From Rhodanobacter sp. C06 (lineage in GTDB: Bacteria > Pseudomonadota > Gammaproteobacteria > Xanthomonadales > Rhodanobacteraceae), in assembly GCF_002001105.1 (NCBI RefSeq), contig NZ_MUNP01000065.1:1-45404 (forward strand): a stretch of 45,404 nucleotides of DNA. The letters run 5' to 3'. Shown here one piece after another: positions 3,724-14,010 of the stretch. How positions within the stretch are numbered: the first letter of the stretch is position 1; every line of letters begins with the position of its first letter. The notes under the pieces were generated by a model, which had not been told where the DNA came from, ran no database searches, and saw nothing but the letters and a program-made list of their open reading frames with translations. The position numbers were made by a program, and so were the translations under genes.

Positions 3724-4154
3724 GGCGACTCTCCATGACCGGATCACGGTCAGCAGATGAGGCGGGTTAGCACCAAGGGTCCCCGCGGGAATTCGGGTGG
3801 CGGGGACCCTTGTCTCCCGCGACCCGGCGAACGGCCCGCGGCCATGGGCCGAGGGCGAAAGACTGCGAAGTATGGGGCAAAATCGGGAAAAACTGAACCT
3901 GCGTCAATTCATCCGGGTTTGCCATAATGGGGGATCGGGGAGGGTCGGGGCCGAACTCGCGGCAAGCCGGGGCGCTCGCCAAGGCCAGCCCCGAGCGCAA
4001 CGATGACCTGCCGGATGCCGCGCAAGTTTCCATCGCTTGCGTGCGTCCCGCGTGAACCCGCCGCCGGCAACGGCGTGCGACAGCCAGCTGATCGATGCAG
4101 CCCGTCGGCCCATGGAAGGCTCGCAGGGCCACCATTCAAGGGGAACCAGACACC
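3724..4154. other. speD-clp divergent intergenic region with inverted repeats
   Basis: About 430 bases without a gene, between two divergent genes. It holds a perfect 13-bp inverted repeat (3774-3786 and 3800-3812, loop of 13), and a shorter one, CGGCCC/GGGCCG, around 3833-3852. A possible -10 element CATAAT at 3923-3928 points toward clp and would give a leader of roughly 220 bases; its -35 is poor. The first repeat has no T-run, so it is more likely an operator or a structured leader of speD than a terminator. Confidence 0.5.
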
Positions 4155-4850
4155 GTGGCGCTACTCAAATACCAGCTTCAGCAGGCCTTCGAACGTTCCC
4201 AGGCGCCACTCGCCTTCGCGCCGGACCCGGCCTCGATGGAACGCTTCCTCGCGCTCTGCCATCGCCGCCGCTACCCGAGCAAGACCGCGATCATCCGCCC
4301 CGGCGACCCGGCCAACACGCTGTACTACGTCATCGACGGCTCGCTCGCGGTGTGCACCGAGGACGAGCAGGGCCGCGAGCTGATCCTCGCCTACATCAAC
4401 CGCGGCCAGTTCATCGGCGAGATGGGCTTGTTCGTGGAGCAGTCCCAGCGCGAGTCGGTGGTGCGCACGCGCACCGTGTGCGAGATGGCCGAGATCAGCT
4501 ACGAGCGCCTGTTCCAGCTGATGAAGGGCCCGTTACAGGAGGAATGCCCGAAGATCCTGTTCGCGATCGGCTCCCAGCTCACCAACCGCCTGCTGCGCAC
4601 CTCGCGCCAGGTGAGCCGGATGGCGTTCATGGACGTCACCAGCCGCATCTCGCGCACCCTGCTCGACCTGTGCGACGAGCCGGACGCGATGACCCACCCG
4701 GAAGGCACCCAGATCCGGATCTCGCGCCAGGAAGTCAGCCGCATCGTGGGCTGTTCGCGCGAGATGGTCGGCCGCGTGCTCAAGCAGCTGGAGGAGCAGG
4801 GCATGATCGACGTGTCCGGCAAGACCATCGTGGTTCGCGGCACGCGCTAG
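4155..4850 (+). CDS. clp: Clp-type CRP/FNR-family transcription regulator
   Basis: 231 residues from GTG at 4155, against about 230 for Xanthomonas Clp. The N-terminal cyclic-nucleotide-type domain includes RPGDPANTLYYVIDGSL and FIGEMGLFVEQSQRE. The C-terminal winged helix carries ISRQEVSRIVGCSREMVGRVL as recognition helix. In Xanthomonas, Clp is released from DNA by c-di-GMP and a glutamate in the segment after GEMGLF is involved; the matching Glu (E100) is present here, judged from a remembered alignment. AAGGGGA lies upstream of the GTG. An upstream ATG at 4095 in frame is possible but would add an unusual tail. Two c-di-GMP turnover genes lie directly downstream on the other strand, and the last 66 bases are copied at 8133-8198. 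Confidence 0.9.
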   Translation: MALLKYQLQQAFERSQAPLAFAPDPASMERFLALCHRRRYPSKTAIIRPGDPANTLYYVIDGSLAVCTEDEQGRELILAYINRGQFIGEMGLFVEQSQRESVVRTRTVCEMAEISYERLFQLMKGPLQEECPKILFAIGSQLTNRLLRTSRQVSRMAFMDVTSRISRTLLDLCDEPDAMTHPEGTQIRISRQEVSRIVGCSREMVGRVLKQLEEQGMIDVSGKTIVVRGTR

Positions 4851-4880
4851 GCCATCACGCCCGCCGGCGGGCGAGCCGCA

Positions 4881-7829
4881 TCACCGCTGCCTTGCCGCGC
4901 CCGCGGCGGCCGCGGGAAGGCAGGGCGACGGCTCCGGCCGGCCAAGCATGAAGCCCTGTCCGAATTCGCAGCCCATCGCCAGCAGCGACATGCGCTGCCT
5001 CGCGGTTTCGACACCTTCGGCAATCACGCTGATGCCCAGCGTGCGGGCCAGCGCGAGGATCGCCGCCACCACCGAGTCGGTGCCGGCGCCGCCGACCGCA
5101 TCCAGCTCGCGCACGAAGATCCGGTCGATCTTCAGCTTGCCCAGCGGCAGCGAGTGCAGGTAGCTCAGCGAGGAATAGCCGGTGCCGAAATCGTCCAGCG
5201 CCGTCAGCACGCCTGCGGCGCGCAGGCGCTCCAGGATGGTGCGCACCTGTTCCGGATCGTCCAGTAGCGCGCCTTCGGTCAGCTCGATCAGCAGCCGCGT
5301 GGGCGGCAAGCCGCTGCGTTCGAGCAGTTGCAGCAGCCGGCGGTCGAAATGCGCATGGCGCAGGTGCTGTGGCGAGACATTGATCGTCACGAAACCCGCA
5401 CCGGCATCCGGCCGCGCCATGCGTGCGCAGACCTCTTCGTAGAGCTGCCAGTCGATCGCCTCGAGCTGGCCGCAGTCCTGCGCGATGCGCACGAAATCGT
5501 CGGGCAGCAGCAGGCCACGCCGCGGATGGTTCCAACGCAGCAACGCCTCGTGGCCGACCACCGCGCCGTTGTCGAGCCGGAAGATCGGCTGGTAGTGCGG
5601 CACGAACTCGCCGTGCTGCAAGGCATGGTGCAGCTCGACCTCCAGCGCCAGCTCGTCCACCGCATTGCGGGCCAGCGTCTCGTCGAACATCACGTGGCGG
5701 CCGCGTCCCAGCTGCTTGGCGCGGTACAGGGCGATGTCGGCGTCGCGCAGCAGCGCGTCGGCCTGCACGTGGCGCTCGTTGCCGATCGCGATGCCCACGC
5801 TGGCGGAGGGCTGCAGCTCGCGGCCGCCGATCGACAGCGGCTGGTGCAGGGCTTGCAGCACGCCCTGCGCCATGCGCTCGGCGACGGCCGGCTCGGCGAC
5901 CGCATCCAGCAGGACCGCGAACTCGTCGCCGGCCAGCCGCGCCACCACGTCCGGTTCGTGCACGCAGGCGCGCAGGCGGCTCGCGGTCGCCTGCAGGAAG
6001 GCATCGCCGGCCAGGTGGCCGAGGCTGTCGTTGATCACCTTGAAGCGGTCCACATCCAGATAGAGCAGCGCGCAAGGCAGTGCGCCCGACGGCTGCCGCG
6101 CCAGCCGCTCGCCCAACCGCTCGCGCAGGAAGCCGCGGTTGGGCAGGCCGGTAAGCGGGTCGTGCATCACCTCGTGGCGCAATTGCCGCTGGATCTGCTC
6201 GCGCTCGGCGATCTGCTCGCGCAACTCGCGGGTGCGCGCCTCCACCCGGTGCTCCAGCTGCAGGTTGGCCTGCAGCAGGTCGGTGGCGGCACGGCGGCGG
6301 TGGATGCTGTTGGCAATCTGCAGCGCGGCGAAGCCCAGCAGTTCCTGGTCGGCCGCGCCGAAGCGCATCTCGTCGCCATAGCCCTGCACGGCGACCACGC
6401 CGATCACCGCGTCGCCCGCGCGAAGCGGCACGCCGAGCCAGCAGGCGGACGGCGTGCCGATGTGGTGGGGCACCACCTCGCCCGCTTGCGCCAAGGCGTC
6501 CAGCTCATGCCGACTGCCCAGCCACGGCCGGCCGGTGCGCAGCACGTAGGCGGTGAGACTGCGTTCCAGCGGCAGGCTGAAGGCACTCTGTACACCGGCG
6601 TCCACGTAATACGGAAAATCCAACCGCTGCCGCTGCTCGTCCAGCAGGGCGATGTAGAAATTCGAGGCGTCCAGCAGGCTGCCCACCTCCGCGTGCACGT
6701 GCTGGTAGAACGCCTTCTCGTCGAGGTCGGCGGTGGCCAGTTCGGCCAGCCGGAACAGCACCGACTGCAGGCGTTCGGCGCGCTGGCGCTCCAGCACTTC
6801 CTGCTGCAGCTCGCGGTTGGCGGCGGCGAGTTCGCGGGTGCGCCGCAGTACCCGGCGTTCCAGCTCGTCCTTGCTCTGCTTGCGCTCCAGCGCGGTGAGC
6901 ACGTGCGCGGCGACGAAGCCCAGCACCGCGCGGTCCTCGTCGGAATAGCCCACGCCTTGGCGATAGCTCTGCACCACCAGCGCACCATGCACGCGCCCTT
7001 CGCGCAGCATCGGCACGCCCAGCCAGTCCACGCTGTCCGGGCCGATCACCTGCAACGGGCCACCGATCTGGGCAGCCAGTTGCTCGGCGCTACCCATCAA
7101 TGGCTGCCCACGGGTCAGCAGATACCAGGTGAGCTGGCCGCGCCGCTCCTCCAGCGGCTCCTCGCGAGCGATGTCGGGACCTTCGGCATCCACCGAGTCG
7201 GCGTAGTACAGGAAACGCAGCGTGCCGCGCTCGGGGTCGTGCCGCACGATGTAGAAGTTCTCGGCGTACATCAGCGTGCCGACGATGGCGTGGATACCGC
7301 GCAACAGCTCGGGCATGTCGAGATCGGCACCGGCCAGGTCGGAGATCGCGAACAGGGCGCGCTGCAGGTTTTCCGAGCGTTCCAACTGGCGATGCGAGCC
7401 GTGCAGCTCGGCCAGCGCCAGCAACTGCTGCAGTTGGCGACCGGCCAGCACCAGGCAAGGTTCCAGCGCCGCGGCCAGCCGCGTGGCGACTGCCGCGTCC
7501 TCCGGCGCCAGCAACAGCACGGCGGGCACGTCCGGCGCCAGCCAGATCGCGAGTTCGCCGTCGACGGCCGTCGACGCGGCCTCCTCGTCGCGCAGCAGCG
7601 CCAGCATTCGCGCCCGCGCAGGCGCGTCGACGGGGCCGTCCGCGGCACGGCACTCGCCCCGCTCGAGCCACAGCAGGCGGGCATCGCGACAGCCCACGCA
7701 GCCACGGGCCAGTTCCACCACCAGTTCGCCCACCGCCTGCGGCGTGGACGCGCCGATCAGCCGGCCCAGCCAAGCCAGCTGGTCGGTTTCGTCCGGAATC
7801 GTGACATGCGACCTGCCGAACTGGTTCAT
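4881..7829 (-). CDS. GAF-GAF-GGDEF-EAL cyclic-di-GMP protein (copy A)
   Basis: 982 residues from the ATG at 7829. Order: a divergent N-terminal region (about 1-130), a first GAF-like domain (about 150-320), a coiled-coil segment, a second GAF-like domain (about 370-530), another coiled coil, GGDEF (AGDEF at 633-637), and EAL (EAL at 761-763). No transmembrane segment is seen, so it should be cytosolic. The EAL domain keeps EALLRW, INVSPQ, IELTEG, DDFGTGYSSL, LKIDR and IAEGVE, so c-di-GMP phosphodiesterase activity is likely. The GGDEF has Ala at the first position, which is tolerated in some active cyclases. It is a tandem paralogue of the gene at 8195-11146 and convergent with clp. The open frame upstream of 7829 lacks any matching sequence in the paralogue. 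Confidence 0.9.
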   Translation of the reverse strand: MNQFGRSHVTIPDETDQLAWLGRLIGASTPQAVGELVVELARGCVGCRDARLLWLERGECRAADGPVDAPARARMLALLRDEEAASTAVDGELAIWLAPDVPAVLLLAPEDAAVATRLAAALEPCLVLAGRQLQQLLALAELHGSHRQLERSENLQRALFAISDLAGADLDMPELLRGIHAIVGTLMYAENFYIVRHDPERGTLRFLYYADSVDAEGPDIAREEPLEERRGQLTWYLLTRGQPLMGSAEQLAAQIGGPLQVIGPDSVDWLGVPMLREGRVHGALVVQSYRQGVGYSDEDRAVLGFVAAHVLTALERKQSKDELERRVLRRTRELAAANRELQQEVLERQRAERLQSVLFRLAELATADLDEKAFYQHVHAEVGSLLDASNFYIALLDEQRQRLDFPYYVDAGVQSAFSLPLERSLTAYVLRTGRPWLGSRHELDALAQAGEVVPHHIGTPSACWLGVPLRAGDAVIGVVAVQGYGDEMRFGAADQELLGFAALQIANSIHRRRAATDLLQANLQLEHRVEARTRELREQIAEREQIQRQLRHEVMHDPLTGLPNRGFLRERLGERLARQPSGALPCALLYLDVDRFKVINDSLGHLAGDAFLQATASRLRACVHEPDVVARLAGDEFAVLLDAVAEPAVAERMAQGVLQALHQPLSIGGRELQPSASVGIAIGNERHVQADALLRDADIALYRAKQLGRGRHVMFDETLARNAVDELALEVELHHALQHGEFVPHYQPIFRLDNGAVVGHEALLRWNHPRRGLLLPDDFVRIAQDCGQLEAIDWQLYEEVCARMARPDAGAGFVTINVSPQHLRHAHFDRRLLQLLERSGLPPTRLLIELTEGALLDDPEQVRTILERLRAAGVLTALDDFGTGYSSLSYLHSLPLGKLKIDRIFVRELDAVGGAGTDSVVAAILALARTLGISVIAEGVETARQRMSLLAMGCEFGQGFMLGRPEPSPCLPAAAAGAARQR

Positions 7830-7986
7830 GGCGCCGATGGTTTCCCCCTGACCGATGGTAGCGCGCGACCGCGGCAGCGCACAGCATCCGCCCCGGGCAC
7901 TGCCTGGCCGCCAGGAATGAGGGTTTCGATCTGGATCCTCACGGGTCCGCCGGCACCACCAAGGCCGTCTCCACACAGCCTGCTGG

Positions 7987-8137
7987 CGCCTGACAGACGA
8001 CCTCCCCGACCTTCGCCCGCGCGCCTCGCAGGGATGGATAATCGCCGAGGAGGCGAAGGCGCTGGCCGGTCAAGGTGGCTCGCGCAGAAAAAGAATCTGT
8101 TGGTCGCCACCACCGCCGTGGCGCTGCACGAACAGCT
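7987..8137 (+). pseudogene. Remnant of the dinG 5' end left by tandem duplication
   Basis: Bases 7987-8137 align with 11390-11609 inside dinG: the blocks CGCCCGCGCGCCTCGCAGGG, ATCGCCGAGG, GGCGAAGGCGCTGGCCGG, then GCGCAGAA and GTGGCGCTGCA occur in the same order. Relative to dinG, 69 bases are missing between two GCCGG words (dinG 11469-11537), which removes the Walker A codons. The fragment ends at CAGCT, where it passes directly into the copy of the clp 3' end. It has no dinG start and no complete domain, so it is a dead fragment. A 54-codon frame (ATG at 8034 to the TAG at 8196-8198) runs through both remnants but is probably not a gene. Confidence 0.88.
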
Positions 8138-8198
8138 AGAGGAGCAGGGCATGATCGACGTGTCCGGCAAGACCATCGTGGTGCGCGGCACACGCTAG
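8133..8198 (+). pseudogene. Copy of the clp 3' end (66 bp)
   Basis: Bases 8133-8198 match clp 4785-4850 at 63 of 66 positions, including the TAG stop; by eye the three differences are A/G, G/T and A/G. Only the last 21 codons plus stop of clp are present. The fragment is joined in frame to the dinG remnant at the shared word CAGCT. It ends against the stop codon of the second GGDEF/EAL gene, just as real clp ends against the first. Confidence 0.93.
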
Positions 8199-11146
8199 GC
8201 GTGCCCCGGTGCGTCCTGCTGCACCGTGGCCAGGTCGACCGTGGCGCGCCGGGGCAACGGGCCCGGTCGCCCCAGCAGGAAACCCTGCCCGAACTCGCAA
8301 CCCATCGCCAGCAGCGCATCGCGCTGCGCCTCGGTCTCGATGCCCTCGGCGATCACGCCGATGCCGAGTGCGCGGGCCAGTGCGAGGACGGCCGACACCA
8401 CGGTGTCGGCACCGGCGCCACCGGCGGCGTCCAGTTCGCGCACGAACACCTGGTCGATCTTCAGCTTGCCCAGCGGCAGCGAGTGCAGGTAGCTCAACGA
8501 GGAATAGCCGGTGCCGAAATCGTCCAGCGCCGCCTGCACACCCGTGGCCCGCAGGCGCTCCAGCGTGGCACGCACCAGCACCGGGTCCTCCAGCAGCGCA
8601 CCTTCGGTCAGCTCGATCAGCAGCCGCGCGGGTGGCAGCCCGCTGCGCCCGAGCAACTGCAGCAGCCGGCGATCGAAATGCGCATGGCGCAGGTGCTGCG
8701 GCGAGACATTGATCGTCACGAAGCCCGTACCGGCGTCCGGCTGCGCCATGCGCTCGCAGGCCTGGCTGAACAGCTGCCAGTCGATCGCCTCGAGCTGGCC
8801 GCAGTCCTGCGCGACGCGCACGAAATCGCCGGGCAGCAGCAGGCCGCGTCGCGGGTGGTTCCAGCGCAGCAGGGCCTCGTGGCCGACTACGTCGCCGTTG
8901 TCGAGCCGGAAGATCGGCTGGTAGTACGGCACGAACTCGCCATGCAGCAGGGCGTGGCGCAGCTCGACCTCCAGCGCCAGTTCGTCCACCGCATTCCGGG
9001 CCAGCGTCTCGTCGAACAACTCGTAGCGCTTGCGACCGCCTTCCTTCGCGCGATACAGCGCGGTGTCGGCGTCGCGGAGCAGCTCGTCGGCGCTCAGGTA
9101 GGCGCCTCCACCGATGGCGATGCCCATGCTGCCCGAAGGCGCCAGGTCGCGACCGGCCAGCTGCATGGGTGCCTCCAGTGCGTCCAGCACGCGCCTGGCC
9201 ACCGCCGTGGCGGCGTCGGGCGAGGCCACCTCCTCCAGCAGGATGGCAAACTCGTCGCCGGACAGGCGGGCCACCACGTCCGGCTCTCGCACGCAGCTGC
9301 GCAGACGGTATGCGATCTCCTTCAGAAAGATGTCGCCGGCCAGGTGGCCCAGGCTGTCGTTGATGACCTTGAAGCGGTCCACGTCCAGGTAGAGCAGCGC
9401 GCAGCGGCGCTCCGGCTCGCGCTGCAACGTGATCAGCATGCGTTCCAGCCGGTCGCGCAGCAGGCTGCGGTTGGGCAGGCCGGTCAGCGCGTCGTGCATC
9501 ACCTCGTGCTTCAGCTGCTCCTCGACGCGCTCGCGCTCGGCGATTTCCTGGCGCAACTCCTTGGTACGTTCGGCCACGCGCTGTTCCAGCTCTGCGTAAG
9601 CGTGCTGCAGCGATACGGCGGCGCGGCGGCGGTGGATGCTGTTGGCGATCTGCAGCGCGGCGAAGCTGAGCAGCTCCCGGTCGGCCTGATCGTAGGTGAC
9701 CGACGGCGTATAACTCTGCACCGCGACCAGGCCGATCACTTCCTCGGCGACCTGCAGCGGCACGCCCAGCCAGCACACCGCCGGACGGCCGATGCGCTCC
9801 GGGTCGATCTCGCCTCGCGCGGCCAGCGCCGCCAGGTCCTCTTCCAGGGCCAGCAGCGGCCGGCCGCTGCGCAACACGTACTCGGACAGGCCACGCCCGA
9901 GCGCGCGCTCCTGCGTGCGGCGCACGCCGGCGTCCACGTAGTAAGGGAATTCCAGCTTCTGGCGGTCGGCCGAAAGCAGCGCGATGAAGAAATTCTCCGC
10001 ATTGATCAGTTCGCCCGCCACCGCATGGGTGCGCCTGTAGAACTCGTCCTTGTCGATGTCTGCGGTGGCCAGCTGGGCAAGGTGGAACAGCGCCGCCTGC
10101 AGCCGTTCGGCGCGCTGCCGCTCGAGCACTTCCTGCTGCAGGTCGAGGTTGGCCGTGGCCAGCTCCTGCGTGCGACGGCGCACGCGGTCCTCCAGTTCGT
10201 CGCGGCTCTGCTTGCGCTCCAGCGCGGTCAGCACGTGGTTGCCGACGAACTCGAGCAGCGCGCGGTCCTCCGCGGTGTAACCGATGCCCTGGCGATAACT
10301 CTGCACCACCAGGCCACCATGGACCTCTCCGTCGCGCGTCATCGGCACGCCCAGCCAGTCCAGCGCGTCGGGACCGATCGGCGCGAATTCGCCGGTGATC
10401 TGCCGGCCGATTTCCTCGATGCTTCCCATCAGCGGCTTGCCGCCACTCAGCAGGTGCCAGGTGAGCGTGTCGCGCCCGCCGTCCAGCGGATGATCGACGT
10501 TCAGCGGCGGCACATCGGTGTCCTCGGTGTCGGCGTAGTAGAGGAAGCGCATCGTGCGCCGCTGAGGGTCGCAGCGGACGATGAAGAAGTTCTCCGCATA
10601 CATCAGCGTACTGACGATGCCGTGCAGCCGGCGCAGCACCTCGGCCATCTCCAGCTCGGAGCCGGCCAGGTCGGAAATGGCGAACAGCGCGCGCTGCAGC
10701 GACTCGGAGCGCTTCAGCTGGCGGTGCGAGTCCTCCAGTTCGCACATCCGCAGCGAGCGTTCCAGCGCCTGGGCGATCAGCGGCAGGTAGGGGTGCAGGG
10801 CGGCCAGCAGCGCCCCTTGATCGGCGCCGCGATCCAGCTCCACCAGCAGCGTGGCGCGCCCCTCGGGCAGCAGGCGCAACGCCATCACGTCGCCGAACGA
10901 CACATGTGGCAGGCCGGCGCGCTCGAGCCGGCTTCGCACCATCGTCAGCGATGGCGAAGCCGGCGCCGGTGCCGGCAGTACATGCGGCCACGCAACCTGC
11001 GCGCCCGCGCAGCCCGGCTGCGCCCGCGTAAGCGCCGCCACCACGCGCGCGACGTCGCCCGGATCGACTGCCCGCACCAGTCGGGTCAGCCAGAACGCGA
11101 TCGCGCCATCTTCATGGACCGGCACGCTGGCGTGCGGGTCGTTCAT
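8195..11146 (-). CDS. GAF-GAF-GGDEF-EAL cyclic-di-GMP protein (copy B)
   Basis: 983 residues, one more than copy A, with the same domain order. It has an N-terminal region of about 140 residues unlike that of copy A, two GAF-like domains, GGDEF (SGDEF at 629-633) and EAL (from residue 757). EALLRW, INVSPQ, IELTEG, DDFGTGYSSL, LKIDQ and IAEGIE are all present, so phosphodiesterase activity is expected; cyclase activity is less certain. The strongly conserved parts are the EAL domain and the segments between the GAFs; the N-terminus has diverged most, suggesting different input signals. The gene runs divergently from dinG and its stop overlaps that of the clp 3' copy. Confidence 0.9.
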   Translation of the reverse strand: MNDPHASVPVHEDGAIAFWLTRLVRAVDPGDVARVVAALTRAQPGCAGAQVAWPHVLPAPAPASPSLTMVRSRLERAGLPHVSFGDVMALRLLPEGRATLLVELDRGADQGALLAALHPYLPLIAQALERSLRMCELEDSHRQLKRSESLQRALFAISDLAGSELEMAEVLRRLHGIVSTLMYAENFFIVRCDPQRRTMRFLYYADTEDTDVPPLNVDHPLDGGRDTLTWHLLSGGKPLMGSIEEIGRQITGEFAPIGPDALDWLGVPMTRDGEVHGGLVVQSYRQGIGYTAEDRALLEFVGNHVLTALERKQSRDELEDRVRRRTQELATANLDLQQEVLERQRAERLQAALFHLAQLATADIDKDEFYRRTHAVAGELINAENFFIALLSADRQKLEFPYYVDAGVRRTQERALGRGLSEYVLRSGRPLLALEEDLAALAARGEIDPERIGRPAVCWLGVPLQVAEEVIGLVAVQSYTPSVTYDQADRELLSFAALQIANSIHRRRAAVSLQHAYAELEQRVAERTKELRQEIAERERVEEQLKHEVMHDALTGLPNRSLLRDRLERMLITLQREPERRCALLYLDVDRFKVINDSLGHLAGDIFLKEIAYRLRSCVREPDVVARLSGDEFAILLEEVASPDAATAVARRVLDALEAPMQLAGRDLAPSGSMGIAIGGGAYLSADELLRDADTALYRAKEGGRKRYELFDETLARNAVDELALEVELRHALLHGEFVPYYQPIFRLDNGDVVGHEALLRWNHPRRGLLLPGDFVRVAQDCGQLEAIDWQLFSQACERMAQPDAGTGFVTINVSPQHLRHAHFDRRLLQLLGRSGLPPARLLIELTEGALLEDPVLVRATLERLRATGVQAALDDFGTGYSSLSYLHSLPLGKLKIDQVFVRELDAAGGAGADTVVSAVLALARALGIGVIAEGIETEAQRDALLAMGCEFGQGFLLGRPGPLPRRATVDLATVQQDAPGHA

Positions 11147-11328
11147 GTTGCCTCCGTGGGGAGCCTCGAGGGATCCCGCTTGGCCGCCGGTTCACCCACG
11201 CGAGTGGGTCGGGAAAACCAGGGGGGATGGTGGCTCACCCCATTCCCGGCTTCGGCAGCAGCCATCTGATCTTGAGCTCCCGCCGTCCCGGATGCCATGC
11301 AAGTATCGGGCCGAAAACGCATTGCCGG

Positions 11329-11334
11329 TAGAAT
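11329..11334 (+). promoter_or_regulatory. Candidate -10 element of dinG (near-leaderless)
   Basis: TAGAAT ends six bases before the dinG ATG at 11341. If this is the -10 box, transcription would start at or next to the start codon, giving a leaderless mRNA. The matching -35 is weak and no purine-rich ribosome site precedes the ATG. No LexA-type palindrome was recognised. Confidence 0.4.
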
Positions 11335-11340
11335 GCGGGC

Positions 11341-13455
11341 ATGCTCACTAACCCTACCAAGGCCGCCATCCGCGCCGCTTACTCGCGCCTGAAGGACGGT
11401 CTGCCCGGCTTCCGCCCGCGCGCCTCGCAGGGAAAGATGATCGCCGAGGTGGCGAAGGCGCTGGCCGGCGCAGGCGGCGTCGCGGCGATCGAGGCGCCCA
11501 CCGGCACCGGCAAGTCGATGGCCTACCTGATCGCCGGCCACGAGGTGGCGCGCGCGCAGAAGAAGAAGCTGCTGATCGCCACCGCCACGGTGGCGCTGCA
11601 GGAGCAGCTGGTGGAGCGCGACATCCCGCTGTACCTGCAGCTTTCCGGACACGTGGCGAAGGTGGCACTGGCCAAGGGTCGCGGCCGCTACCTGTGCCCG
11701 CGCAACCTGGCGATGGCGCGCAACAGCCTCGCCGGTTCAACACAGATGGGCCTTGCGGGCTTCGACGCCGACCTCGCGCTGTGGGCCAGGCCACCCGCCG
11801 AGCGCGACAAGCAGGCCTTGTCGAAACTCGCCCAGGCCTTCGACGCCGGCGAGTGGAACGGCGACATGGACAGCGCGCCCGAACCGGTGAGCGACCTCTT
11901 GCGCCCCATGCTCACCACCAGCGCCGGCGGCTGCACCAACCGCAAGTGCGGCCAGTTCATGATCTGCCCGTTCTTCGCCGCACGCCGCGCGGTGGATGAC
12001 GCCGACATCATCGTGGCGAACCAGGACCTGGTGCTCGCCGACCTCACCATGCCGGGCGACGGCGACGGCGGCCCCGATCCGGCATGGGGCGGCGTGATCC
12101 TGCCGCGTCCGGACGAGACGCTGTACGTGTTCGACGAGGCCCATCACATTCCCGGCAAGGCGATCGACCGCGGCGCCGCCGAGGTGCATCTCGCCAACGC
12201 GGTGCGCCAGCTGAGCCGGCTCGGCCGCCAGGTGCATGCAGCCTATTCGCTCACCGACAAGGAAAACCTCGGCAAGCTCTCGCTGGATGCCGGCGACGCC
12301 AAGTTGCAGGAACTTTCCGACGCACTGGAGGCGCTGGAAAAGGAAATCCGCCTCGGCTGGCTGCCCGATCCCGCCGAGAGCGAACCGATGTACCGCGGCT
12401 CGCTGGGTCGCCTGCCCGAGGCCTGGGTGGAACACGCGCGCCTGCTCGGCCTGCAGGCCGGCGAAGTGCAGCGCTGGCTGGCCGCGGTGCGCCGCGCCGT
12501 GGTGGAGATGACCGATGGCGGCCCCACCCAGGAAGCGTTGTCGCGCGAGCTGGGCATCGCACTGGAGCGCGTCGGCAAGCAGGCCGCCTGCTGGCAGGCC
12601 TGGTCGGTGGACGATCCCGACCAGGCGCCGCCGTTGGCGCGCTGGGTCACGCTCACCGGCGACCAGCAACTGGTCTGCCATGCCTCGGCGGTGTCCGCCG
12701 CGGGCCTGTTGCGCAACGTGCTGTGGGGCAACGCCAGCGGCGTGGTGCTGACCTCCGCCACGCTGAGCGCGGGCGGCAACTTCCGCGGCTACGCCGACGC
12801 CGTGGGCCTGCCCGACGACGCGGTGACGCTCAGCCTGCCCTCTCCGTTCGACCTCGCCGCGCAGGCGCAACTCGAAGTGCCGGCGATGGACGCGCTGCCC
12901 GACGCGCGCGAGGAGCACGCGCAAGCGATCAGCGACTGGCTGGCCGAACACCTCGACTGGGACGCCGGCAACCTAGTGCTGTTCACCTCGCGCGCCAAGC
13001 TCGACCGCGTGCTGCAGCGCCTGCCCATCGACAAGGTACGCAAGGTGCGCGCGCAGGGCTCGCTGGGCAAGACGCAGCTGATCGCCGAGCACATCACGGA
13101 CGTTGAATCGGGCCGCGGCAGCACGCTGTTCGGCCTCGCCAGCTTCGGCGAAGGCCTGGACCTGCCCGGCAAGCTGTGCGAGACCGTGGTGATCACCCAG
13201 CTGCCGTTCGCCGTGCCCACCGACCCGGTGGGCGCCACCTACGCGGAATGGCTGGAATCGCGCGGGCGCAACCCCTTCATCGAGGTAAGCATCCCCGAGG
13301 CCACCCGCCTGCTCACCCAGTACTGCGGCCGCCTGATCCGCAACGAGAGCGACAGTGGCCGCATCGTGCTGCTGGACCGGCGCGTGGTCACCAAGCGCTA
13401 CGGTGCCGGGATGCTGCGGGCGTTGCCGCCATTCCGGCGCGTGATCGAGAGATAG
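11341..13455 (+). CDS. dinG: ATP-dependent DNA helicase DinG (XPD-like, iron-sulfur)
   Basis: 704 residues. This superfamily 2 helicase with 5'-3' polarity resolves DNA-RNA hybrids and other structures during replication stress. Walker A is APTGTGKS (about 52-59), Walker B is DEAH (265-268). Four cysteines at about 119, 198, 203 and 209 (YLCPRN, then CTNRKC, then ICPFF) fit the 4Fe-4S domain between motifs Ia and II. The helicase C half includes LTSATL, GLASFGEGLDLPG, and the final QYCGRLIRNESDSGRIVLLDRR motif VI region. Length matches the family. The HutD-like gene follows after 3 bases, probably in one transcript. A dead copy of its 5' end lies at 7987-8137. Confidence 0.95.
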   Translation: MLTNPTKAAIRAAYSRLKDGLPGFRPRASQGKMIAEVAKALAGAGGVAAIEAPTGTGKSMAYLIAGHEVARAQKKKLLIATATVALQEQLVERDIPLYLQLSGHVAKVALAKGRGRYLCPRNLAMARNSLAGSTQMGLAGFDADLALWARPPAERDKQALSKLAQAFDAGEWNGDMDSAPEPVSDLLRPMLTTSAGGCTNRKCGQFMICPFFAARRAVDDADIIVANQDLVLADLTMPGDGDGGPDPAWGGVILPRPDETLYVFDEAHHIPGKAIDRGAAEVHLANAVRQLSRLGRQVHAAYSLTDKENLGKLSLDAGDAKLQELSDALEALEKEIRLGWLPDPAESEPMYRGSLGRLPEAWVEHARLLGLQAGEVQRWLAAVRRAVVEMTDGGPTQEALSRELGIALERVGKQAACWQAWSVDDPDQAPPLARWVTLTGDQQLVCHASAVSAAGLLRNVLWGNASGVVLTSATLSAGGNFRGYADAVGLPDDAVTLSLPSPFDLAAQAQLEVPAMDALPDAREEHAQAISDWLAEHLDWDAGNLVLFTSRAKLDRVLQRLPIDKVRKVRAQGSLGKTQLIAEHITDVESGRGSTLFGLASFGEGLDLPGKLCETVVITQLPFAVPTDPVGATYAEWLESRGRNPFIEVSIPEATRLLTQYCGRLIRNESDSGRIVLLDRRVVTKRYGAGMLRALPPFRRVIER

Positions 13456-13458
13456 CGC

Positions 13459-14010
13459 ATGAGCATCCTCCGCCTCGCCGATTGCCCGGCCAAGCCATGG
13501 AAGAACGGCCTGGGCCGCACCCGCGAAATGGCCATCCATCCGTCCGGCGCGGGCATGGACGATTTCCTGTGGCGGGTGAGCGTCGCCGAGGTGGAGAGCG
13601 CCGCGCCGTTCTCCGCGTTTCCGGGCATCGACCGCGTGATCGTCCTGCTGGCCGGCGACGGTTTCACGATGAAACTCGACGACGGTCGCACGCACGCACT
13701 CACCACGCTCGGTGTGCCGTTTGCGTTCCCCGGCGAAGCCGGCGTGGACGTGGCACTGGCCGGCGGCCCCTGCCGCGATTTCAACCTGATGTTGCGCCGC
13801 GGCCGAGTGCGTGGCGGCATCGAGGTGTGGCGCACGGCGGGTGCGCGGCAAGCCGATGCCGCCATCGTGCTGGTGTACTGCATGCGCGGTCACATCGACA
13901 CCGGCGACGGCGTGCTGCAGGCCGGCGACGCCTGGCGCCCCGGTTCCGGCGCGCTCGTGCTGCACGAGAACACGCTGGCGCTGGCCGTGCGCGTCGAAGC
14001 GGTTACCTGA
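13459..14010 (+). CDS. HutD/Ves family cupin-like protein
   Basis: 183 residues. It starts with LRLADCPAKPWKNGLGRTREMA and continues with DDFLWRVSVAEVESAAPFSAFPGIDR, both typical of the HutD/Ves family. That family forms a double cupin; it is linked to histidine utilisation in pseudomonads and cold induction in E. coli, with no firmly established activity. Here no hut gene is in sight. The start codon lies three bases after the dinG stop, with GAGAG inside the dinG end as ribosome site, so it is probably co-transcribed with dinG. Confidence 0.85.
   Translation: MSILRLADCPAKPWKNGLGRTREMAIHPSGAGMDDFLWRVSVAEVESAAPFSAFPGIDRVIVLLAGDGFTMKLDDGRTHALTTLGVPFAFPGEAGVDVALAGGPCRDFNLMLRRGRVRGGIEVWRTAGARQADAAIVLVYCMRGHIDTGDGVLQAGDAWRPGSGALVLHENTLALAVRVEAVT

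What the first reader, a model, noticed from the sequence alone, without database searches (positions are those of the whole stretch)
4785..11610. Molecular fossil of a tandem duplication: clp end, GGDEF/EAL gene, dinG start
Between the two GGDEF/EAL genes lies a fused fragment: 7987-8137 resembles the first part of dinG (11390-11609), and 8133-8198 is a 63/66 copy of the clp 3' end. Both source genes have CAGCTG at the breakpoint (4785-4790 and 11605-11610), and the fragment has CAGCT at the junction. The simplest explanation is that an ancestral clp / GGDEF-EAL / dinG stretch of about 3.4 kb was duplicated in tandem through microhomology, after which the extra dinG start decayed (69 bases between two GCCGG words are missing, taking the Walker A codons). 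The result is two similar proteins (982 and 983 residues) with very different N-termini, while the clp scrap stays almost unchanged.
Basis: seen in the sequence. Interest (0 to 1): 0.82.

Follow-up and report, generated by a model that had tools for sequence, protein, structure and literature searches.

The report
Tandem gene pair, one copy mosaic
A bacterium related to Rhodanobacter carries two neighbouring signalling genes joined by a leftover scrap of a duplication-like event, but the second gene is a patchwork from other lineages rather than a simple duplicate, which suggests the pair arose by taking in a relative's version of the same locus.

Summary
The scrap is real: 7958-8137 is a decayed dinG start and 8133-8198 is 63/66 of the clp end, joined at a 9-nt word shared by both genes, in frame in both. 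One GGDEF/EAL gene lies between clp and dinG in 8 of 14 other genus members; the sister G082 matches clp 100%, copy 1 94%, dinG 96-97%. So the junction reading is right, but the two genes are not simply diverged duplicates. Copy 1 is the resident gene. Copy 2 is a mosaic: its EAL quarter is of the resident clade's type (yet as far from copy 1 as another species is), its GAF2-GGDEF middle is nearest Frateuria, its N-terminus and the dinG-side spacer are nearest another lineage (L005). The main break is at window ~9020, the GGDEF/EAL border (max chi2 116 and 134, 0 of 1000 permutations each). The first 60 nt of working dinG may also be imported. Best explanation: a relative's clp-GGDEF/EAL-dinG piece joined beside the resident one, by homology in dinG and by the short word at the other end; the displaced dinG start decayed. 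Main rival: in-place duplication, then overwriting. Unexplained: clp' changed far less than dinG' (2/65 against 30/170 sites, p = 0.0025).

The parts
4095..4850 (+). clp (CRP-family regulator), resident
   Evidence: Pfam cNMP_binding, HTH_Crp_2, Crp; 100% aa (rounded) to G082
4851..4880 (.). 30-nt stop-to-stop spacer clp/copy 1 with a GC-rich inverted repeat (by eye); same length in G082
4881..7829 (-). copy 1, GAF-GAF-GGDEF-EAL protein (982 aa), resident type
   Evidence: Pfam; 94% aa to the G082 single copy; inside a 100/100 clade of 8
7958..8137 (+). dinG': decayed copy of dinG codons about 6-90, without Walker A, with a 69-nt deletion and frameshifts
8131..8139 (+). junction: dinG codons run in frame into clp codons at the shared word AGCAGCTGG (scrap: AACAGCTAG)
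8133..8198 (+). clp': last 22 codons of clp including the stop, 63/66 to clp, 64/66 to G082 clp
8195..11146 (-). copy 2, GAF-GAF-GGDEF-EAL protein (983 aa), mosaic; its stop overlaps the clp' stop (CTAG)
8297..9019 (-). copy 2 EAL block, resident-clade type (95/98), NG dS 0.29-0.32 to copy 1, G082 and PCA2 (tree and dS on 8297-8986)
9020..10455 (-). copy 2 GAF2-GGDEF block, nearest Frateuria terrea/flava (tree on 9077-10246)
10456..11146 (-). copy 2 N-terminal block, nearest L005 (100/100; the tree block was 10247-11146 and so reaches past the break)
11147..11340 (.). 194-nt copy 2/dinG spacer; its dinG-side 43 nt are 81% identical to L005; unlike the 113-nt G082 spacer
11341..11400 (+). first 60 nt of working dinG: 7 of 34 window-unique changes of dinG fall here
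11341..13455 (+). dinG, working copy (704 aa)

Best explanation
The locus carries two versions of one chromosomal site in tandem: the resident clp-copy 1-dinG, and an incoming clp'-copy 2-dinG piece from a relative whose GGDEF/EAL gene was already a mosaic. Shown: the dinG'|clp' junction; the single-copy state in relatives; copy 1 is of resident type; copy 2 is mosaic. Inferred: the incoming piece crossed over by homology inside dinG (about nt 60 to 120 of dinG) and was joined at its other end at the 9-nt word AGCAGCTGG, a one-sided homologous, one-sided illegitimate event. The resident dinG start was cut off from its gene and decayed; working dinG now has the incoming spacer and perhaps the incoming first codons. 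Because the two genes were unlike from the start (64% aa today), ordinary recombination would not easily collapse the pair. Both proteins keep the motifs of c-di-GMP enzymes, so the likely effect is an extra, differently controlled c-di-GMP enzyme beside clp (inference).
For: Junction in frame at a 9-nt word. Sister G082 single copy: clp 100%, copy 1 94%, dinG 96-97%. copy 1 + copy 2 as sisters rejected. Mosaic break at ~9020: sites G082-like/Frateuria-like 173/349 then 161/48 with F. terrea, 189/356 then 174/40 with F. flava, 0 of 1000 permutations each; copy 1 as control 177 and 251 of 1000. Block trees conflict: EAL + Frateuria rejected p 1e-64; GAF2-GGDEF + resident clade rejected p 0.003; N-terminus + resident clade rejected p 0.002 (blocks chosen after seeing the profiles). 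Even the EAL block is at between-species distance from copy 1 (NG dS 0.32, against 0.085 for copy 1-G082). Spacer of L005 type. Changes clustered in dinG nt 1-60 (7 of 34 window-unique, shuffle p 0.0006; 10 of 111 window-G082 differences, p 0.03), while dinG' keeps the G082 base at 6 of those 7 sites (site list; four of the seven lie in the first 15 columns, where the scrap alignment is less sure). Scrap as a whole groups with window + G082 (99/98). DprA and ComEC homologues in the genome.
Against: clp' and dinG' should have decayed alike after one event, but changed sites are 2/65 and 30/170 (Fisher p 0.0025). The AU test does not exclude an older scrap (p 0.13 for both halves together, 0.47 for dinG' alone, 0.20 for clp' alone), and neither half alone has starred support for window + G082 (59/97 and 88/92). 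The donor was not found. dinG' shares two bases (dinG nt 23 and 43) seen only in the window's working dinG among the nine genes compared, as an in-place duplication would predict. 0 of the 7 dinG changes match L005, and start codons may simply tolerate change. AGCAGCTGG is not the longest word that clp and the dinG start share: G082 also has an 11-nt one.
Confidence: 0.55

Rival explanations
1. In-place tandem duplication of clp'-copy 1-dinG' in the window's lineage, then overwriting of the second unit (N-terminal ~70% of the gene, spacer, perhaps the dinG start) by foreign DNA.
For: Same junction facts; dinG' and clp' together fall with window + G082 (99/98) and dinG' shares two window-only bases; the EAL block beside clp' is of resident-clade type.
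Against: The EAL block is as far from copy 1 as PCA2 is, and copy 1 + copy 2 is rejected for that block (p 4e-5), so the duplication would have to predate the G082 split and be lost in G082. copy 1 + copy 2 + G082 for that block is not rejected (p 0.22).
Confidence: 0.25
2. Old duplication at the base of the resident clade, second unit lost in the other sampled members.
For: dinG' is nearly equidistant from the nine clade dinG genes (0.20-0.23); an old scrap is not rejected (p 0.13).
Against: Several independent losses, each restoring a short spacer (107-115 nt in the seven single-copy clade members) and an intact dinG start; clp' has the stop TAG and the codon GTG shared with window, G082 and PCA2, against TGA and GTC in the six other clade members shown.
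Confidence: 0.12
3. One reading: one local duplication, then drift of the two genes.
For: Junction and single-copy relatives.
Against: AU tests and mosaic structure.
Confidence: 0.05
4. Assembly chimera of two strains.
For: Draft of 82 contigs, contamination estimate 2.25%; the window is one whole contig.
Against: The dinG start at the join is decayed, not a clean piece of a working gene, and both flanks match the same sister species at 94.0 and 93.7%.
Confidence: 0.03

Closest known systems
Homology-facilitated illegitimate recombination (HFIR)
   Same: one homologous anchor, the other end joined by a few bases (this description is partly recalled; PMC6382021, passages seen, reports it for S. 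pneumoniae, A. baylyi and P. stutzeri with 3-10 bp segments)
   Different: here inferred from a natural arrangement, not observed; donor not found
Transformation-generated merodiploids of Streptococcus pneumoniae (PMC3784515, abstract and passages seen)
   Same: uptake of a short donor piece gives a tandem duplication; one merodiploid held both the intact and the cassette version of the target gene
   Different: those duplications are ~100-900 kb and use repeats already in the chromosome; here about 3.4 kb and a 9-nt word
Classic tandem-duplication join point (general knowledge)
   Same: start of the right-hand gene joined to the end of the left-hand gene between two related units
   Different: the two units are not sister copies
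LchP-Clp c-di-GMP module of Lysobacter (PMC7577485, passages seen)
   Same: a GGDEF/EAL enzyme linked to the regulator Clp
   Different: the LchP fragment is PAS-GGDEF-EAL and LchP forms a complex with Clp; here GAF-GAF-GGDEF-EAL, linked by gene order only

Membership tests
Tandem-duplication join point | fragment of the right-hand gene start fused to the left-hand gene end between the two units | tested here: met
Tandem-duplication join point | the two units are sister copies | tested here: not met
HFIR-type integration | short-word junction on one side | tested here: met
   AGCAGCTGG, 9 nt. The word is not special: in G082 clp and the first 300 nt of dinG share five 9-nt words, three of them inside one 11-nt word elsewhere
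HFIR-type integration | homologous crossover on the other side | tested here: inconclusive
   changes clustered in dinG nt 1-60, none in 61-120
HFIR-type integration | donor with the incoming version | tested here: inconclusive
   not found: best DNA match 80% over 2480 of 3191 nt in 233 family genomes, with only one or two candidates scored in each genome listed; 80 loci kept of 152 in genome contigs, best 69% aa
Bifunctional GGDEF/EAL enzymes | GGDEF and EAL domains over the Pfam cut-off in both copies | tested here: met
Bifunctional GGDEF/EAL enzymes | enzyme activity | not testable with these tools
   motifs present (EALLRW, DDFGTGY, A/SGDEF); the meaning of the motifs is recalled
Clp of Xanthomonas/Lysobacter | CRP-type domains | tested here: met
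Clp of Xanthomonas/Lysobacter | c-di-GMP binding | not tested
   reported for Lysobacter Clp (PMC7577485, passages)

The most novel reading that the evidence does not exclude
A tandem gene pair that was unlike from birth: uptake of a relative's allele beside the resident one, by one homologous and one short-word join, fixed in nature. Such a pair would escape the rapid collapse of identical tandem copies and give an instant pair of diverged paralogues.
Probability: 0.5. Interest if true: 0.6.

Novelty: new variant of a known kind. Interest (0 to 1): 0.45.

Why it matters
It turns a seemingly ordinary duplication fossil into a readable record of how a bacterium can add a second, already different gene at a locus. 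It also warns that a duplication-type junction does not show that the genes beside it are sister copies. The site (0, 1 or 2 GGDEF/EAL genes between clp and dinG; mosaic alleles in two lineages, the window and L005) is a place to study exchange of c-di-GMP enzymes next to a regulator that, in Lysobacter, binds c-di-GMP.

Tried and rejected
The combined scrap tree is flawed: its dinG tail was out of register by an indel (seen); one search replaces it. The tally of scrap changes printed does not use that tail. Whole-gene trees average over the mosaic and alone would suggest one foreign origin of copy 2; on the whole gene copy 2 + L005 is unsupported (76/43), resident clade + copy 2 is not rejected (p 0.38), and copy 2 + Frateuria is rejected (p 1e-58), which the block trees explain by the EAL part. 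Base composition shows no foreign block by eye. No Rfam match in 4000-14000. The promoter/terminator scan found nothing above shuffles. The clp' RNA does not fold better than shuffles on either strand (z 0.38 and 0.58), so no structural reason for its conservation was found. A clock for dinG' is unsettled: the window-G082 difference in aligned non-coding DNA is 8.6% (rough gene calls), NG dS of clp, dinG and copy 1 to G082 is 0.12-0.18 and YN00 dS 0.25-0.44; of five trial rates from 0.06 to 0.22 none gave both scrap halves p over 0.05. The plasmid search gave 236 records, none covering 80% of the query. Paper searches for this arrangement: searches returned none; two searches returned 3 and 2 papers, of which PMC3784515 is used above and the others were seen in the listing only.

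I first meant to count copies per genome, but it scored only one or two candidates in each genome listed and cannot count copies; that count is not used. In one search the GGDEF pattern hit a different stretch in 4 of 35 rows (L007, L018, L020, L091); those are not used. Trees used 22 and 17 of the 35 GGDEF rows gathered. In one search the clp dN/dS row of G117 was skipped because of a frame problem in its extracted CDS. The recombination scan tested 6 rows for the main break and 3 rows for the second.

Full report
WHAT IS THERE. In the window clp (4095-4850, +) is followed by copy 1 of a GAF-GAF-GGDEF-EAL gene (4881-7829, -), a scrap (7958-8198, +), copy 2 (8195-11146, -) and dinG (11341-13455, +). 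The scrap is a dinG start (7958-8137 against 11356-11609) fused to the clp end (8133-8198, 63/66). The dinG part scores 114 against a maximum of 35 in 500 shuffles. The genes share the word AGCAGCTGG at the break, in frame in both. The word itself is not special: in G082, clp and the first 300 nt of dinG share five 9-nt words, three of them inside one 11-nt word elsewhere. The dinG part lost 69 nt between two GCCGG words and three smaller pieces (one search shows one 73-nt gap and the 1-nt gap). Its 29 unique changes fall evenly on codon positions (10/12/7 of 65/65/64), as in a dead gene; clp' has 2 in 66.

RELATIVES. In the genus 15 genomes were searched, the window's own included. Of the 14 others, one (G148, 1.5 Mb) gave no hit to any of the three genes at the limits used. 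Eight have one GGDEF/EAL gene between clp and dinG (G082, G106, G022, G095, G069, G149, G150 of copy 1 type; G137), two have none (G117, G147; spacers of 44 and 33 nt), and three have clp and dinG apart (G127, with a GGDEF/EAL gene beside dinG; G041; G054). By equal contig lengths G106 is Rhodanobacter sp. PCA2, G022 DHB23, G149 LL2.bin48, G150 clean409 and G137 FW106_bin.11 (L005). G082 is closest: clp 100%, copy 1 94%, dinG 96-97%. The fused scrap was found in 1 of 233 family genomes.

COPY 1 IS RESIDENT, COPY 2 IS NOT ITS SISTER. On a careful protein tree of 22 rows copy 1 sits with G082 inside a 100/100 clade of eight; copy 2 lies outside. Holding copy 1 and copy 2 together is rejected (p-AU 2e-7), also with G082 added (1e-5).

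COPY 2 IS A MOSAIC. Identity changes sharply along the gene: residues 721-960 are 81-90% identical to copy 1 and G082 but 59-70% to Frateuria flava; residues 481-640 are 85-90% to Frateuria flava and 65-69% to copy 1; the first 240 residues are nearest L005. Site-pattern scans put breaks at window ~9020 (chi2 116 and 134 with the two Frateuria references, 0 of 1000 permutations each) and ~10455 (L005 against Frateuria, chi2 59, 0 of 1000; controls G082 141 and copy 1 409 of 1000). Controls for the first break, with the two references: copy 1 177 and 251 of 1000, G069 351 and 447, PCA2 2 and 29, DHB23 34 and 66; the last two are low, but with much smaller chi2 (9-20) and at another place near the gene's end. 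L005 is itself mosaic (chi2 35 and 31, 0 of 1000). Block trees, with blocks chosen after seeing the profiles: the EAL block is in the resident clade (95/98; + Frateuria rejected p 1e-64; + L005 borderline, p 0.0501); GAF2-GGDEF is nearest Frateuria (92/97 with flava and terrea, 72/86 with all three; + resident clade rejected p 0.0026; + L005 not rejected p 0.14); the N-terminal block pairs with L005 (100/100; + Frateuria rejected p 9e-5; + resident clade rejected p 0.002). The EAL block of copy 2 is at NG dS 0.29-0.32 from copy 1, G082 and PCA2, while copy 1-G082 is 0.085, so even this block is not a recent copy of copy 1.

EDGES OF THE FOREIGN PART. The 194-nt spacer between copy 2 and dinG does not look like the 113-nt G082 spacer; its dinG-side 43 nt are 81% identical to L005, the only locus genome hit by the blastn search of this spacer at E <= 0.01. 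In working dinG 7 of 34 window-unique changes (against G082, PCA2, DHB23 and G069) are in nt 1-60 (shuffle p 0.0006), none in 61-120; of all 111 window-G082 differences 10 are in nt 1-60 (p 0.03). None of the 7 equals L005. At 6 of these 7 sites dinG' keeps the G082 base (list), though four of the seven lie where the scrap alignment is less sure. These facts fit a crossover inside dinG between about nt 60 and 120, the part before it being imported and dinG' being the displaced resident start (inference).

WHAT DOES NOT FIT. clp' and dinG' ended their use in one event under every simple model, yet at sites where window and G082 agree dinG' changed at 30/170 and clp' at 2/65 (Fisher p 0.0025; 0.012 if only the dinG' part next to the junction is used). 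Both clp' changes are at third codon positions. Either clp' was renewed later, or it is under constraint (it forms the copy 2 stop and lies in its 3' region), or it is luck. No RNA structure was found. The scrap as a whole groups with window + G082 (99/98), but each half alone is not starred (59/97 and 88/92) and an older origin is not rejected (p 0.13, 0.47, 0.20). dinG' also shares two bases seen only in the window's working dinG, which speaks for in-place duplication.

FUNCTION. Both proteins keep EALLRW, DDFGTGY and an A/SGDEF motif. The product-inhibition site RxxD (recalled motif) reads REPD in copy 2 and HEPD in copy 1; its Arg is missing in 7 of 8 copy 1-type proteins. So copy 2 may add a feedback-controlled enzyme (inference). 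Clp binds c-di-GMP in Lysobacter (PMC7577485, passages); whether this Clp does was not tested.

HOW IT PROBABLY AROSE. A relative's clp'-copy 2-dinG piece joined the chromosome by homology in dinG and at the 9-nt word at the other end (0.55). In-place duplication followed by overwriting is next (0.25). Comparable processes are described: HFIR (PMC6382021, passages) and transformation merodiploids (PMC3784515, abstract and passages). DprA and ComEC homologues are present, but they are widespread (the families ring in 11 and 10 of 14 control genomes).

Noticed in passing
L093 (G117) and L097 (G147): clp and dinG are adjacent with 44 and 33 nt between them; the GGDEF/EAL gene is absent there, so the site varies between 0, 1 and 2 genes within one genus.
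   Followed up: partly
L005 (Rhodanobacter sp. FW106_bin.11), GGDEF/EAL gene: This single-copy gene is also mosaic, with a break near the position matching copy 2 nt 1703.
   Followed up: no
8034-8198 +: A 54-residue open frame starts in dinG' and ends in the clp tail; the join of dinG and clp codons is in frame.
   Followed up: partly
4881-7829 and relatives: The RxxD inhibition-site Arg is missing in 7 of 8 copy 1-type proteins, with different replacements (H, C, S, V), and kept in G095 and in copy 2.
   Followed up: partly
7023-7172: Copy 1 against G082 has a local peak of 31 mismatches in 150 nt, against 3 and 10 in the two neighbouring blocks; possibly another small exchange.
   Followed up: no
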